Assembly (NCBI GenBank): GCA_028713325.1
Contig: JAQTON010000001.1
Coordinates: forward strand, 124,001-188,000
Length of the DNA: 64,000 bases
Reading direction: 5' to 3'
Origin: Candidatus Altimarinota bacterium
GTDB taxonomy: Bacteria; Patescibacteriota; Gracilibacteria; BD1-5; UBA2023
Within the stretch, counting starts at the first letter, position 1. Each line of letters starts with the position of its first letter. The position numbers and the translations under genes are program-made. Below the pieces are notes generated by a model that saw only the letters and a list, made by a program, of their open reading frames with translations, had not been told where the DNA came from and did no database searches. This document shows positions 6,363-49,094 of the stretch, piece after piece.

Positions 6363-6998
6363 ATGTGTTTTTCCGCAACTGCGAGTTTTACATCCGGAGC
6401 CATACTCATCGTTGCCGGAATATTCACGCTCCGGCATGTGAGGGTGAAGTCCTCAATCCCTTTTGCGAGTATCCCCTTACTTTTTGGTATCCAGCAGACT
6501 ATTGAGGGCATGGTGTGGATATCCTTCGGTTCGCCGATTTTCCACTCGGTCGTCACCTATATATTTGCTCTGTTTGCGTACGTACTCTGGCCGATTTTTG
6601 TCCCTATTACGATATGGCTCATAGAAAAAAATCCAGTGCGAAAAAAAATACTTTTTGGCATATCCATCGTAGGGACGTTGGTAGGCATATATCTTTTTGC
6701 TTGCAGTATAGCGGGTCCGGTAACATGCAGTATAGTGCAAAAAAGTATCGCGTATCAAATAAACGTGCCCTATCCCTTTCTGAGCTTCCTTCTTTATTTT
6801 TTCGCTACCTGTGTGGGAAGTATGGTCTCAAGTTCTCTAAAAATTCGTATTTTTGGAACCGCTATGCTTTTGTCCTTTTTTGTCGCTCATGCATTGTATC
6901 CCGAGACATTGTTTTCGGTTTGGTGCTTTTTTGCGGCCCTTCTGAGCCTGATTATTTATATCCATATGAAGGATCTGCGAGCACTTGTAGCGAGTTAA
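6363..6998 (+). CDS. DUF6629-like integral membrane protein
   Basis: 211 residues, 7-8 hydrophobic segments. I chose the ATG at 6363 because MCFSATASFTSGAIL is the conserved N-terminus of a prokaryotic membrane family (MCFSA..SF), followed by IPLLFGIQQTIEGMVW. The open frame extends further upstream but without conservation. Function unknown. The family name is from memory. The membrane assignment is directly visible. Confidence 0.75.
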   Translation: MCFSATASFTSGAILIVAGIFTLRHVRVKSSIPFASIPLLFGIQQTIEGMVWISFGSPIFHSVVTYIFALFAYVLWPIFVPITIWLIEKNPVRKKILFGISIVGTLVGIYLFACSIAGPVTCSIVQKSIAYQINVPYPFLSFLLYFFATCVGSMVSSSLKIRIFGTAMLLSFFVAHALYPETLFSVWCFFAALLSLIIYIHMKDLRALVAS

Positions 6999-7052
6999 AA
7001 AATACCCTGCTTTTTTTATTCAAAATATCAATACCATAGTCTTCATCCTATC

Positions 7053-7475
7053 TTAGGCACAGACAAGATCGTTTCTTCCGCTTCGTTCTATGGGCAGTCT
7101 CTTTTTGAAATTAAGATTTTCTCGGTGTTCTTCCAGTAAGATAGACAGAACAGTGCCTCATATTCGAGTTTTTAGTACTCTGGCATAGGCAAATCTATCT
7201 TCTAATAAGAGTGGCATTTTGCCCCCTTCCTCCATTTCTATCAGATGATTCATATCGTGCATCTGTTCTCGGGAGAATTTGCCTGACAGTAAAGCAGAGT
7301 CTTTTCGATGTGTTTTCAATAATAGAGAGAGGGCAGCTCCGCATATTCTCCCTCTTAATTCCTCCACACGCTGACTTTTTTGTTCTATAGGGACAACTTG
7401 TTCGTTTCCAACGATAATGTCATTGAGGGAATGAATATCCTGTATTACTCCTTTTGGCAAATCATTCAATAACAT
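7053..7475 (-). CDS. Hypothetical protein, 140 aa
   Basis: ATG at 7475, TAA at 7053-7055, one in-frame TGA (7158-7160). Soluble, mostly helical, rich in charged residues (KSQRVEELRGR, LEEHRENLNFKKR). There are no transmembrane segments and no recognised family. It converges on the upstream membrane protein gene. Confidence 0.6.
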
Positions 7476-44124: not shown

Positions 44125-44192
44125 ATATTGAAAATGAGATTATTTGCACACTTTTCTAAATTATTCTAATTTCCGTTATATAAAATATGGGT

Positions 44193-44222
44193 ATATATAG
44201 AAAATGCAAATTTTCTATATAT
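44193..44222. terminator. AT-rich hairpin, possible terminator at the island edge
   Basis: ATATATAGAAAAT/ATTTTCTATATAT with 4-nt loop. The gap 44125-44378 otherwise contains only a 22-codon frame with a good Shine-Dalgarno (44303-44382). Confidence 0.45.
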
Positions 44223-44378
44223 TATCGAGATGTGTAGAAATTTTATTCGTTTTCGAGTGAGAATCAAAAAAACCAAATTTCAAAATAGAAAAATGGTTTT
44301 ATAGAGAGGAGAAATGAATGTTGCAGTTGTAAAGAGTTTACAATGGAAAGATTGTTCATTCAAAGTGACTTATTATAC

Positions 44379-46025
44379 TTAATTTTTTTCAATATATTTA
44401 AAAATATTTAATAATTCTTCTCTTTTTGCATCATCTGAAACTTGAAAATCATCTGAAATATATTGTTCAATTGCTCAGTTTGATAATACAACTATGTTGT
44501 CTTTCTGTAAGTCACTAATTATTTCATATTTTAATTTTTTCTGCTCGGCTGTGATATTTTCATCCAATAATGTGGTTGGGTTCTTTTTGGTTGTCTCAAT
44601 ATTAAGTTTTTGGATTTTCTGCCAGATTTCTGATGAATAATTCTTTAAGGCATTGTTTGTTTTTGATAGTACATCAATATCAAAAAGAAAAAACGATTTA
44701 ATTCAGAATTTTGTACATAGGTCTTTGAATGGAGAATAGTCACTACATCAAGCCAGTAAATAAAAATCTTTTCTTAATTCATTAAATCAGTTATCTTCGC
44801 AAAAAACAGGATATCTATCATAATCATCAACTCATTCGACAAATATTGCCTTTTTTGTGAAGAAAAGTTTATGGTGATGATAAAAAAATTTTCTATTTTC
44901 CTTTAAATTTAGATCAATACTGGATTTATTTATTGAGAAGGAATTGCTTGTATTATCGTCATTTTTTCTGTATTTAATGATATTTTTTACAAGTTTACTT
45001 GCAATAAAATTTTCAGAATGTGTAGATATAAAAACTTGATGGTTTTTAGATAGTATTTTCAGAGCATTAAATAATTTTTTTTGAGCTTGCGGATGTAGTC
45101 ATAATTCAGGTTCATCAATAAAAAGAAAATGGGGCTTTTTTATCGCCTCTCATTCTTCATTCATAGATTGAGACATTCTTTGTGCATAGACCTGTAAAAG
45201 CGATAATACAACAGCTCTTTGAAGTCAATGTCCCTTTTGGTTAATATCAGTTTCTTGTCAATCATTTACAAAAATTTTAATATTCTTGAAAAGAATACTA
45301 GGTTCGGGATTTTCAAATTGAAATCTTAACTTTGCCTTTCAAAATTGATCATTCAGTATGGTCTCAGTTTCGCTCGCCACATCATTTAATTCTTTTTGCA
45401 ATCCAGAAGTATCACTATTGAAAGTGGTATCAAATATATCTAAAAATTTATTATATTGATCTTTATGATTAACTTTGAATTTATCAGAAATATCAGATAA
45501 TAAATTTCCACAAATTGTAGCACTTCAAAATCTTGTTTCATCCTCAGGATTTGTGTTTGCCCATATATTACTAATTTGGAAAAATGCCTGAAAAGATCAA
45601 TCAATTCATGATATATTTTCGTATGTTCATTCTTTTAAAAAGAGAATTTTTTTTATCTCTTCATCATCTTTGAATGACCTTTTTACTGCAAATATTTTTT
45701 CTCATTCATTTTCGTGAATACATTTTTTAAATGCCTCTTTTTTATTATCTTGAGCAAAGTCATCGATTACATTCTCAATATCTTCGCCAGTAAATGTTAA
45801 TTCAACAAAAAATTCTTGTTCTCATTCTGTGTTAAGCCTTTTAAAATCCTTTTTTGTTTTGTTACGCAAAAAATAAACTGCCTCTAATATTGAAGATTTT
45901 CATGAATTATTTTCTCATACTAATATATTTAAACCACTTCACTCTGTTCCGTTAGGAATACAAAATTGAACTAATTCCCCATTAAAACATTTAAAATTTT
46001 TTACCTTAAGTTCCTTGATAAACAT
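44379..46025 (-). CDS. OLD-family ATPase with TOPRIM domain (retron-associated)
   Basis: 548 residues from ATG 46025 to TAA 44379, invisible under the standard code because 19 of its 25 glycines are TGA. SMC/ABC-like ATPase: Walker A VGENNSGKSS (36-45), signature-like KGHGLQRAVVLSLL (about 265), Walker B FLFIDEPELGLHPQ (about 300), switch ISTHS. C-terminal TOPRIM: FVEGVDD (about 395) and DID in FFLFDIDVL (about 448). OLD proteins are nucleases with ATP control. Some retrons (for example Eco8) use one as effector. It starts 25 nt after the reverse transcriptase stop, so one operon. The best-supported role is anti-phage effector (inference from context). Confidence 0.9.
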
Positions 46026-46049
46026 TTGTTGAAAATTATTAAATAAGGC

Positions 46050-47051
46050 TTATTTTAGATTAACATTAAATTCTAATAATTTTTCATTATACTCTGGTGA
46101 AAGACTTTTTATAAAAGAAAGGTGTCATCATAGTATTTGTTTAAATTTTTCTATACTGGAAATGTTTACCTCATTTACTTTATTCCATTTACTTAGTTCA
46201 CTACCGAATCAACTTTTAGAAATGTTATAAAATATAGATTTGAACTTTTTAAAATGCTTTCTTCAAACTCATATTTTGTTGTTTACCACAACTCCAGTAA
46301 TTTTTTGCTGTTTTCAGGCTGAGATAAGATGAATTTTTTTATAGTTTGGAAAAAATCATTCTTCCAAAAGAATAGATATAATGTAATTTATTAAAATACT
46401 TACCTTTATTTTCTTGTTAAAAGAAAAAGTTAAATCATCGGCATATCTTGAATAAGATAGGTCTAATCAGGTATTTCCTTCATTATATGACTTTAAAAGT
46501 CATATCAATTTATAATCTAGAAATCTGGCTATTAAGTTTGATAAAGTTGGGCTCGTTGGAGCTCATTGAGGCAATTGATTATTGTAACAACATAATGACG
46601 AAATATACATAGATGTTGCATGATCTAAATCATACTCCTTTCTTAGTAATCCATAAACTCTGTCTTGTGTTATGCTTGGAAAAAAATCTTTTATGTCTAC
46701 TTTTAGAATAAACTTCTTGGCAATATGAAACTCTGCATTGTTTTTTATGCTTTTTCAGGGAATAAATCAGGTAACATTATTGGTTAATAACTCACTTGAT
46801 TTTTTATATAAGATTTTTTGTAAAATTAATCTCTGAGCACTTTTTAATTTAAAAACTGGTGAATATAAAGTTCTTACTCATCAAGTTCTTTTTGGAATCT
46901 CAATTTTCTTATATTTTCATTTTTTTGACATGGCAAAAAATTTCAATTCCTTTTCAGTGAATCAAAATAACTTTAACAAATCTAATTTTATGTTTTTAGA
47001 TGAATAGATATCGTTTTCCGTATCTAGAGCACCACCTTTTTTATCTTCCAT
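46050..47051 (-). CDS. Retron-type reverse transcriptase
   Basis: 333 residues, ATG 47051, TAA 46050, 16 of 22 glycines are TGA. RT motifs in order: KRTGGVRTLYSPVFKLKSAQ, the retron-specific NAEFH (about 104-108, the NAxxH motif), LKVDIKDFFPSI, LPQGAPTSPTLSNL, the catalytic YSRYADDL (Y202-D205), EGFFPNYKKIHLIS, and ITG (about 252, the VTG-like motif that binds the RNA). It makes multicopy single-stranded DNA from its own msr-msd RNA, which lies 248 nt upstream on the same strand. No intron maturase, Cas or variable-repeat features. Confidence 0.93.
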
Positions 47052-47220
47052 AAGAATAAAATTAATTACCTAATTGAGTTTTATAAATTACTATTTTTTC
47101 ATTTCTAAGAAATAGAATAAAAAGAAATTTTCGATAAATGCATACAAAAAGAAAAAATATTTTTATTCTATAAATACAATGAAATTGTAATTTTTGCTTG
47201 CATAAACAAAGTTTACTATT

Positions 47221-47273
47221 GAATAGACTTAATCTATTCCGTGATTTATAATTACCACTAACTCTAATTTATA
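47221..47273 (-). repeat. Partial second copy of the msr hairpins
   Basis: On the minus strand this stretch reads ATAAATTAGAGTTAGTGG, a hairpin (GTG...CAC), then GGAATAGATTAAGTCTATTC. It parallels 47474-47521, where the same order occurs (ATAATTTAGTG, a GTAGTT/AACTAC hairpin, GGAATAGATTAAGTCTGTTC). It lies between the 3' end of the msd and the reverse transcriptase. A further hairpin TACAAT/ATTGTA lies at 47176-47193. Confidence 0.6.
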
Positions 47274-47298
47274 AAACTCAAACATATAATTAACTTAA

Positions 47299-47530
47299 AC
47301 TAACCTTATAATTTACTATTTTTCCCTCCAATGCGGCACTCGTCAAAAAGCTTTAGCTTTGACGAGTGCAGGAGAAAAATGTAATTTTTCCCTGCTGATT
47401 GAATTTTTCAAATTCAATCAGCGGATAATTACGAAGTAATTATAATTGCGTAGCAATATATAACCTTTTCATAGAACAGACTTAATCTATTCCGTAGTTT
47501 TTAACTACAACACTAAATTATAAGGCTAGT
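47299..47530 (-). ncRNA. Candidate retron msr-msd RNA, about 232 nt
   Basis: The 5' end ACTAGCCTTATAATTTA (47514-47530) and 3' end TAAATTATAAGGTTAGT (47299-47315) pair over 17 bp with one G-U, as the a1/a2 arms of retron RNAs do. TAGC in the 5' arm offers the branching G. Inside, in order: hairpins GTAGTT/AACTAC, GAATAGA/TCTGTTC, TTGC/GCAA and TAATTAC/GTAATTA (msr-like), then GCTGATTGAATTT and complement, and a long composite arm with TTTTTCTCC/GGAGGGAAAAA enclosing GCACTCGTCAAA/TTTGACGAGTGC (msd-like). It lies directly between the upstream gene's stop (47549) and the RT. The boundary and branch position are inferred. Confidence 0.75.
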
Positions 47531-47548
47531 ATAAAACAATTATTTAGC

Positions 47549-48556
47549 TTAAAGCTTATCTACAAATTTTCACTTTGAAATACTGACTATATCACTAATG
47601 CATTTTCATCAATCCTTTGCTATAAAATAGGTATATGGGTAATTCGTATATTTATCAAATTTTGAATCCTCTTTATGAATAACGTGTTTATCGATCGATA
47701 AGTATTCAAATGTCTCTTTTAGCTCCCTATATTTTGGTATTCAATAAAAAGAAGACATTTCTTTGTAGAGTGTTTGGAGCTTTATTGATTTAATAATAAC
47801 TAAGTTATTAACAACCATTTGTAAATCTTTAACCAGTAGATATAGATTTTTAATATATTCTTCTGAATACAGATCGGTAAATTCATTCAGATTTATTTCG
47901 CCAATCTTTTTATATAGTATCTCAAGTAGTAGTTTCTCAGTTTTATTAGAGTTGATTCAGATATTATTTAATGTTTTGTCAGGATAGGACAAATTTTTAC
48001 TTTGTTTCCTCTTGTTATTATCTTTAATAATATCATCGACTATGCTTATATAAAAAATAACATTGTGCGTTTTTATGGAGTCAATTGATTCAGAGAGTTT
48101 TGAATTGGTAAAAATAAAAAATAAGTAATTGTTATCATTTTTATCTTTTTGAAAATTTATATTCTGAACAAAGTTTCTTATAGCCTTAAAAATTCAATCA
48201 TTTTTTGTTATAGTGGAATCTTTTCATCATTTTGTTTTTGCTTGAATAAAAATCAAGTTATCAAACTTACCTGAATTATTACCTGATAGTAGATTAATAT
48301 CTTCAAAGCATAATTCTTCTCATTCAAGCATTATATCAATCTTTGTATGAAAATTATCTCAAAATCTTTTACTACAAACATCTCTAAAGCGTAAAATATT
48401 TTTACTAAATATTTTCAAATCTTCAGACAAAAGCTTGGATTTTACGAGCTTATATTTATTATTCTTTAATAATGTAAATATAAACAAAGACAAAAGCCAT
48501 TGAAATATATATCCTCATCATTTTCAATGATCTATTTCTGAATAATCTATTTCCAT
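47549..48556 (-). CDS. Putative nuclease-like protein upstream of the retron RNA
   Basis: 335 residues, ATG 48556, TAA 47549, 13 of 17 glycines are TGA. The N-terminal 120 residues recall DUF4297/Cap4-type (PD-(D/E)XK-like) nucleases: GGYIFQWLLSLF (14-25), LEGEELCFEDI (77-87) and IFIQAKTKGG (102-111), i.e. the E..D..Q-x-K order. The C-terminal two thirds are helical and unrecognised. The stop is only 19 nt from the first arm of the msr-msd, so the gene and the RNA are in one transcript. The similarity is weak. A DNA-binding accessory role is the main alternative. Confidence 0.6.
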
Positions 48557-48717
48557 ACTAACTTTTACTAATTAAAGAAATTAAATTTCCATTTGAGTTA
48601 TTATATTGTTTTCGCTTGAATTAGCAATAACTTCGTAGTTTTTAAAAAATCGACATAGTCGATAATATATAAAATAATTAAAATTATATTAAAATTCAAA
48701 AGATTTTTTCCAAAAAG
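48557..48717 (-). promoter_or_regulatory. AT-rich upstream region of the retron operon
   Basis: 161 nt with about 80% A+T. A weak promoter TTGAAT with TATTTT 17 nt later (near 48660-48695, minus strand) is possible. Contains the hairpin ATCGAC/GTCGAT. No Shine-Dalgarno precedes the ATG at 48556. Confidence 0.35.
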
Positions 48718-48747
48718 AAAATAGTCTCCACTCTGGAGACTATTTTT
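48718..48747. terminator. Terminator between the retron operon and the tRNA-Lys element
   Basis: AAATAGTCTCCA/TGGAGACTATTTTTT, 3-nt loop, T-run on both strands. Confidence 0.8.
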
Positions 48748-48803: not shown

Positions 48804-48978
48804 TAGTGGGTTCACCAGGGCTCTTTTTTCTCAGTGTCGTCCCGATTTCATCGGATCTCGCTTCGAAAAACGCCTTGCCTAAAAAGCCAAATCGTTGGCT
48901 TTTTACCGAATCGCCACTTCGTGGACGATACGGAAGGCTGCGGTTTCTCGCCCCGGGCAGATTCATCTTTTTGTCACT
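48804..48978 (-). repeat. Palindromic element with degenerate copy of the tRNA-Lys 3' end
   Basis: 48804-48823 matches the last 20 nt of tRNA-Lys (49019-49038) at 18 of 20 positions (CCA has become CTA). Between the two are hairpins including TCCAC/GTGGA around 48917-48928 and the 20-nt core 48883-48902 that is identical to the core in the tRNA-Glu element at 5368-5387. As at tRNA-Glu, the order along the tRNA strand is gene, terminator, palindromes, copied tRNA end. Confidence 0.65.
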
Positions 48979-49009
48979 AAAAAGACCCCGTAAAAACGGA
49001 GTCTTTTTT
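48979..49009 (-). terminator. Terminator of tRNA-Lys
   Basis: AAAAAGAC(T/C)CCGT/ACGGGGTCTTTTT stem on the minus strand, 10 nt after CCA. Confidence 0.8.
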
Positions 49010-49018
49010 GATGACAAA

Positions 49019-49094
49019 TGGTGGGTTCACCGGGGCTCGAACCCGGGACCTTCGCCTTAAAAGGGCGCTGCTCTACCAACTGAGCTATAAACCC
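49019..49094 (-). tRNA. tRNA-Lys (TTT)
   Basis: Acceptor GGGTTTA/TGAACCC, anticodon TTT at 49059-49061 in loop CTTTTAA, T-loop TTCGAGC, encoded CCA. It borders the retron island. Confidence 0.95.

What the first reader, a model, noticed from the sequence alone, without database searches (positions are those of the whole stretch)
47549..48556. Extra nuclease-like gene placed before the msr-msd
Typical OLD-type retrons have RNA, RT and effector only. Here a 335-aa gene with DUF4297-like residues (FQW, E..ED, QAKTK) ends 19 nt before the RNA, with the same UGA-heavy codon use. A retron with two putative nucleases, one on each side of the RT, would be a new arrangement.
Basis: partly seen in the sequence, partly recalled or inferred. 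Interest (0 to 1): 0.72.

Follow-up and report, generated by a model that had tools for sequence, protein, structure and literature searches.

The report
Retron with nuclease-like effector, twin RNAs
A probable DNA-cutting protein of an unnamed family sits next to a reverse transcriptase in every related locus found in an uncultured bacterial group that reads UGA as glycine, so it is probably the toxic arm of a new subtype of the bacterial virus-defence system called a retron, one that in several genomes carries two template RNAs in a row.

Summary
The gene is real: 335 codons under genetic code 25, 13 in-frame UGA(Gly), window 48556-47549 (-), ending 18 nt before a structured RNA. The reading 'extra nuclease added to an OLD-type retron' has core and extra swapped. 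In the order (77 genomes) this RT lineage occurs in seven genomes, and all seven carry a homologue of the gene just upstream with a retron-like RNA between (one survives only as a C-terminal piece at a contig end); an eighth homologue's contig ends inside such an RNA. Gene and RT distances correlate (r = 0.95). The OLD gene occurs only in this genome; two other loci carry unrelated ATPase genes. So the 335-aa protein, not OLD, is the constant partner and likely effector. It matches no retron effector model in PADLOC. Its invariant residues (GY-x-[FY]-Q, E...DI, Q-x-K) are those of Cap4/DUF4297 PD-(D/E)XK nucleases; support is sub-threshold (best Pfam Cap4_nuclease E = 0.007) and structure prediction was inconclusive. 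Unexpectedly, four loci, this one included, hold two tandem paralogous msr-msd-like RNAs, each with its own covarying a1/a2 stem. Verdict: new variant of a known kind. No biochemistry exists; function is inferred.

The parts
47549..48556 (-). Gene X, 335 aa (code 25): constant RT partner, putative Cap4/DUF4297-like PD-(D/E)XK nuclease effector. Motif residues G15-Y-x-F-Q19, E78...D86-I87, Q105-x-K107.
   Evidence: frame, homologues, invariants; linkage to RT; Cap4_nuclease E=0.0072 for the G509 homologue
47299..47530 (-). ncRNA module 1, msr-msd-like: a1 47514-47530, likely branching G at 47513, msr hairpins, msd hairpins, a2 47299-47315
   Evidence: z = -11.8; 14 pairs with compensatory change, 0/500 shuffles
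47074..47281 (-). ncRNA module 2, tandem paralogue of module 1: a1 47265-47281, likely branching G at 47264, msr hairpin, msd, a2 47074-47090
   Evidence: z = -6.7; module 1 v. 2 similarity beyond 1000/1000 shuffles in each of four genomes
46050..47051 (-). Retron-type reverse transcriptase, 333 aa, with YADD, NAxxH (NAEFH) and [VI]TG motifs
44379..46025 (-). OLD-family gene (AAA_15 ATPase + OLD-like TOPRIM), 548 aa, 24 nt after the RT; present in this genome only, not conserved with the system
   Evidence: absent from sister loci
48718..48746 (-). Terminator-like hairpin that separates the operon from the upstream tRNA-Lys gene
49019..49094 (-). tRNA-Lys(UUU); the low-G+C island lies on its 3' side, where the neighbours differ in each sister genome

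Best explanation
The locus is a retron of an undescribed subtype. Its core is gene X, then one or two msr-msd RNAs, then the RT. Shown: X and the RT lineage are reciprocally linked; the RNAs are structured and covary; in one clade the RNA is a tandem pair. Inferred: the RT reverse-transcribes the msd part of each RNA into msDNA; the RT-msDNA complex holds X inactive; phage interference with the complex frees or activates X, a PD-(D/E)XK DNA nuclease, which degrades DNA and aborts the infection. The downstream OLD gene is an independent defence gene carried in the same island, as the different ATPase genes are in two sister loci.
For: Linkage: of 77 genomes of the order, seven have the RT above 350 bits and all seven have X upstream (G462 as a C-terminal fragment at a contig end); an eighth X (G574) is followed by an msr-like hairpin before its contig ends. 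X and RT pairwise distances over six loci: r = 0.95. RNA: seven of seven RT loci have an a1/a2-bounded structured RNA between X and RT; covariation; folding z -11.8 and -6.7. RT: retron RT by PADLOC and NCBIfam profiles. OLD expendable: missing from six sister loci.
Against: No statistically sound homology of X to a known nuclease: none of seven homologues reaches the Pfam cut-off (17.0 against 26.2 bits at best), and HMM-HMM probability with DUF4297 is about 1%. Predicted structures were poor (pLDDT 57.8 and 33.1) and Foldseek found nothing. No evidence of transcription, msDNA or phage defence. Four of the loci are closely related, so the counts are not independent events.
Confidence: 0.62

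Rival explanations
1. Two effectors in this genome: X and OLD both act downstream of the same RT-msDNA sensor. Nuclease X is ancestral, and OLD was recruited as a second effector behind the RT.
For: OLD starts 24 nt after the RT stop, on the same strand, with the same UGA-heavy codons. OLD nuclease is the effector of retron Eco8 (PMC12887533). Two further loci carry a tightly packed ATPase gene beside the pair: a PDC-S06 gene after the RT in G552 and an SMC-like gene before X in G551.
Against: The three ATPases belong to three families and occupy different positions; PDC-S06 is a stand-alone candidate system (803.9 bits). G533, G509 and G542 have none. The OLD best matches stand-alone Old.
Confidence: 0.2
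2. X is not a nuclease but a sensor, adaptor or neutraliser in the complex (like the winged-helix protein of type IX retrons), and the toxic part is something else.
For: Fold unproven. Type IX retrons carry a winged-helix protein besides the toxic HEPN RNase in the same operon (PMC13405049).
Against: At least three loci with complete flanks (G533, G509, G542) show no other candidate effector: X is the only conserved protein besides the RT. The residues conserved down to 21% identity are those of a PD-(D/E)XK site.
Confidence: 0.15
3. X is an unrelated neighbour brought together with a retron by chance in a defence island.
For: The locus is a low-G+C island next to tRNA-Lys in a variable site.
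Against: Reciprocal linkage in seven of seven RT loci across two families of the order, same order and strand, always with the RNA between, with correlated distances.
Confidence: 0.03

Closest known systems
Retron type I-B (Retron-Eco8: RNA + RT + OLD nuclease; PMC12887533)
   Same: RNA, RT and an OLD-family gene in one array
   Different: The OLD here fails the curated Eco8-effector cut-off (56.7 against 250 bits), best matches stand-alone Old, is missing from the six sister loci, and none of the RT's 25 best PADLOC models is a type I-B RT
Retron types III-A, XI and XII by RT
   Same: The best PADLOC RT models are XI, III-A and XII, all at 254-256 bits
   Different: A near tie, so the RT belongs clearly to none; no PRTase/WH, protease or TIR partner; X matches no PADLOC retron effector model even at E = 10
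Retron type IX (HEPN + WH, then RNA, then RT; PMC13405049)
   Same: Effector genes listed before the RNA and RT, so 'gene before the RNA' is probably not new in itself
   Different: HEPN RNase and WH protein rather than a PD-(D/E)XK-like protein; no second RNA is mentioned in the passages read
DUF4297 of HerA-DUF4297 and Cap4 of CBASS (PD-(D/E)XK nucleases; PMC11291478)
   Same: GY-x-[FY]-Q, E...DI[ND] and Q-x-K in the same order; weak Cap4_nuclease match
   Different: Below family cut-offs; longer spacing between the motifs; partner is a retron RT, not HerA or a cyclase; no recognisable sensor domain
Retron-Sda1 with PDC-M66 (PMC12548924)
   Same: An unusual gene set beside a retron RT
   Different: A rare association in which the extra genes defend without the RT; here the association holds in all seven loci and tracks the RT's divergence. 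It cautions that adjacency alone is not function

Membership tests
Retron | Retron-clade RT (YADD; NAxxH and VTG motifs) | tested here: met
   PADLOC retron RT models to 256 bits; NCBIfam retron St85 RT 220 bits, below its own subfamily cut-off 235; motifs NAEFH, YADD and ITG in P0002. Motif definitions are from my own knowledge
Retron | Structured msr-msd RNA beside the RT, closed by a1/a2 inverted repeats, with a G just after a1 | tested here: met
Retron | Production of msDNA (RNA-DNA branched molecule) | not testable with these tools
   Needs extraction and sequencing of RT-DNA
Retron | Conserved adjacent effector | tested here: met
   X beside the RT in seven of seven loci; toxicity not tested
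Retron type I-B (Eco8-like) | OLD effector of the Eco8 family | tested here: not met
   NF038234 56.7 bits against cut-off 250; PADLOC best hit Old, 210.9 bits, against ATPase-Toprim_I-B, 80.6
Retron type I-B (Eco8-like) | OLD gene conserved with the RT | tested here: not met
   No OLD beside the RT in G552, G533, G509, G542, G551 or G462
Cap4/DUF4297 nuclease (PF14130 and relatives) | Score over the family's curated cut-off | tested here: not met
   Best of seven homologues 17.0 bits against 26.2; window protein no match
Cap4/DUF4297 nuclease (PF14130 and relatives) | Motif residues Q, E, (E/D)D, Q-x-K in order | tested here: met
   Invariant in seven homologues; same order in the DUF4297 alignment; in register in HMM-HMM alignment
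Cap4/DUF4297 nuclease (PF14130 and relatives) | PD-(D/E)XK fold | tested here: inconclusive
   Model of pLDDT 57.8 shows the order helix 14-31, strand 70-78, strand 99-107, helix 118-132, strand 144-149, compatible with the core, but Foldseek gives no match
HerA-DUF4297 system | HerA ATPase partner | tested here: not met
   The partner is a retron RT in all seven RT loci; no HerA gene was recognised beside X

The most novel reading that the evidence does not exclude
A new retron subtype whose effector is a nuclease family not seen before in retrons and in which one RT serves two tandem, diverged msr-msd RNAs, making two msDNAs that act as two sensors or as two parts of one guard complex.
Probability: 0.4. 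Interest if true: 0.75.

Novelty: new variant of a known kind. Interest (0 to 1): 0.62.

Why it matters
It would add a nuclease class to the known retron effectors and the first retron that I know of with two template RNAs for one RT (no report found in the open-access library searched, and most subscription papers are not held). Two diverged RNAs under one RT would let one test directly what the msDNA sequence senses, by removing one RNA at a time. It would also document a retron system in Gracilibacteria, which read UGA as glycine; standard-code annotation would break all three island genes (13, 16 and 19 in-frame UGA codons), so surveys that ignore code 25 will miss such systems.

Tried and rejected
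No weight is put on them. Wider homologues of X: none in plasmids, phages or viral contigs; genome contigs gave only two already known loci. The weak hit in G240 and the G505/G580 hits were not counted. Comparison with DUF4297 through plasmid homologues of a Patescibacteria protein worked as a motif check but not as proof of homology. Rfam has no family for the RNAs. Chance neighbour: rejected by reciprocal linkage. Type I-B filing: rejected on the OLD cut-off and on conservation. Empty-site test: the tRNA-Lys/helicase side is syntenic in three sister genomes but the other side differs in each, so a clean empty site could not be drawn. First pass over G551 missed its RT because longer overlapping frames hid it; the profile search recovered it.

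Full report
WHAT IS THERE. The window is part of a 1.05-Mb genome (G000) read with code 25; relatives in the same order found by sequence are labelled Candidatus Gracilibacteria. On the minus strand, behind a terminator-like hairpin (48746-48718), lie gene X (48556-47549), two RNA modules (47530-47299 and 47281-47074), a reverse transcriptase (47051-46050) and an OLD-family gene (46025-44379). The 44166-48700 stretch has 25% G+C against 41% and 44% on either side, and its genes use UGA for 48 of 65 glycines against 151 of 1268 in the other long frames of the window. This points to arrival from a more AT-rich relative with the same code (inference). It lies on the 3' side of a tRNA-Lys gene whose neighbours on that side differ in each of three sister genomes. 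None of the six other genomes of the genus has X or the RT.

THE GENE BELONGS TO THE RT. A profile of X found eight genomes in the 353 searched of the class, all in one order, apart from two marginal hits not counted. A profile of the RT found seven genomes in the 77 of that order above 350 bits; the next hit falls to 174 bits. The seven RT genomes are a subset of the eight X genomes. In every case X lies directly upstream of the RT on the same strand with about 200-550 nt between them. G462 is the weakest case: only about 55 codons of the X C-terminus remain before the contig ends. The eighth X, in G574, is cut off 250 nt after its end, but those 250 nt hold the same msr hairpin, AGAATAGATTAAATCTATTCT; no RT was found in the rest of that draft genome. 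In six loci with both complete genes, pairwise distances of X and RT correlate at r = 0.95 over 15 pairs (the pairs are not independent).

OLD IS THE VARIABLE GENE. G533, G509 and G542 have no ATPase gene beside the pair. G552 has a 711-aa gene after the RT that matches PADLOC PDC-S06, a stand-alone candidate, with 803.9 bits. G551 has an SMC-like ATPase before X. G000 alone has OLD, which fits stand-alone Old best (210.9 bits) and misses the Eco8-effector cut-off by far. OLD-like hits occur in 44 of 192 genomes of the class; only a minority of those had any hit for this RT. I therefore read OLD as cargo of the island. That it acts with the retron in G000 is not excluded (rival 1).

THE RNA. 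The X-RT gap in G000, G552, G533 and G509 aligns along its length at a mean column identity of 75% and holds two units, each closed by its own a1/a2-like stem of about 17 bp: ACTAGCCTTATAATTTA with TAAATTATAAGGTTAGT for module 1, TTGAGTTTTATAAATTA with TAATTTATAAAACTCAA for module 2 in G000. Each a1 in G000 ends in TTA followed by G, and each a2 is preceded by G. The outer stem and inner hairpins of module 1 covary: 14 of 63 pairs have compensatory changes against 5.7 in shuffles, 97.2% of cells paired against at most 45.2% when slid. Module 2 has the same kind of outer stem and msr hairpin with 6 such pairs. The G000 modules fold with z = -11.8 and -6.7. Modules 1 and 2 are paralogous: local alignment scores 52-64 against shuffled maxima of 31-38. 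The G542, G551 and G462 loci have a single module. So the doubling marks one clade. Both modules being reverse transcribed is inference.

THE RT. It has the retron motifs and scores 254-256 bits with PADLOC RT models of types XI, III-A and XII, a near tie. It is below the NCBIfam St85 cut-off. I do not assign it to a type.

WHAT X IS. No library names the window protein. Seven homologues share 26 invariant positions; among them are G15, Q19, E78, G79, D86, I87, Q105 and K107. DUF4297 proteins of HerA-DUF4297 systems show GY-x-YQ, E-x3-DI and Q-x-K in the same order and are PD-(D/E)XK nucleases by structure and mutation (PMC11291478). HMM-HMM comparison puts E78, FEDIN and IQAK opposite their E, EDID and VQCK but with low probability. 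The G509 homologue matches Pfam Cap4_nuclease with E = 0.0072 over residues 78-224, below the cut-off. I put nuclease activity at about 0.75.

HOW IT LIKELY WORKS. By analogy with characterised retrons, RT and msDNA form a complex with the effector that keeps it inactive, or inert until triggered; a phage protein perturbs the complex and the effector kills or arrests the cell (PMC12887533, PMC12548924, PMC13405049). Here the effector would be a DNA nuclease, and two different msDNAs might give two triggers or two structural roles. These steps are inferred.

WHAT IS KNOWN. Thirteen types (PMC12548924) or sixteen subtypes (PMC13405049) of retrons are cited. X matches none of the retron effector models in PADLOC-DB 2.0.0 even at E = 10. 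Type IX operons already list effector genes before the RNA. I found no report of a Cap4/DUF4297 effector in a retron or of tandem msr-msd RNAs in the papers searched; the founding classification paper is not held, so this is absence in a partial library.

Noticed in passing
L046:2678-4813 (G552): The gene directly after the RT is a 711-aa AAA_13 ATPase matching PADLOC PDC-S06 with 803.9 bits: another defence candidate in the slot that OLD fills in the window.
   Followed up: partly
L048:7453-9753 and 6487-7422 (G551): A 766-aa SMC-like ATPase gene lies 30 nt upstream of the X homologue, on the other side from OLD and PDC-S06 in their loci.
   Followed up: partly
L047:1-6706 (G574): X lies right behind type I restriction-modification genes (specificity subunit and a 1069-aa HsdR-like protein): a defence island.
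   Followed up: no
L050:993-1256 (G521): An 87-codon remnant starting MKHINFSLGGGFIYQWW looks like a broken X N-terminus, about 1 kb before a recombinase frame; a retron RT of another lineage is on a different contig.
   Followed up: no
L029:6257-7384 (G462): A 375-aa gene directly after the RT has no Pfam or PADLOC match; possibly a further cargo or accessory gene.
   Followed up: partly
window 48830-48985: A degenerate repeat beside tRNA-Lys, with two partial copies elsewhere on contig 1 (80-87% identity) and a similar stretch beside tRNA-Lys in a sister genome (L175).
   Followed up: partly
G000:C3:30746-31423 and G000:C1:421554-421991: Two further reverse transcriptase genes in the same 1-Mb genome, not examined.
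   Followed up: no
L063:1474-2676 (G128): A Patescibacteria member of the HerA-associated DUF4297 family (27% identity to annotated plasmid proteins) with a weak Cap4_nuclease match.
   Followed up: partly
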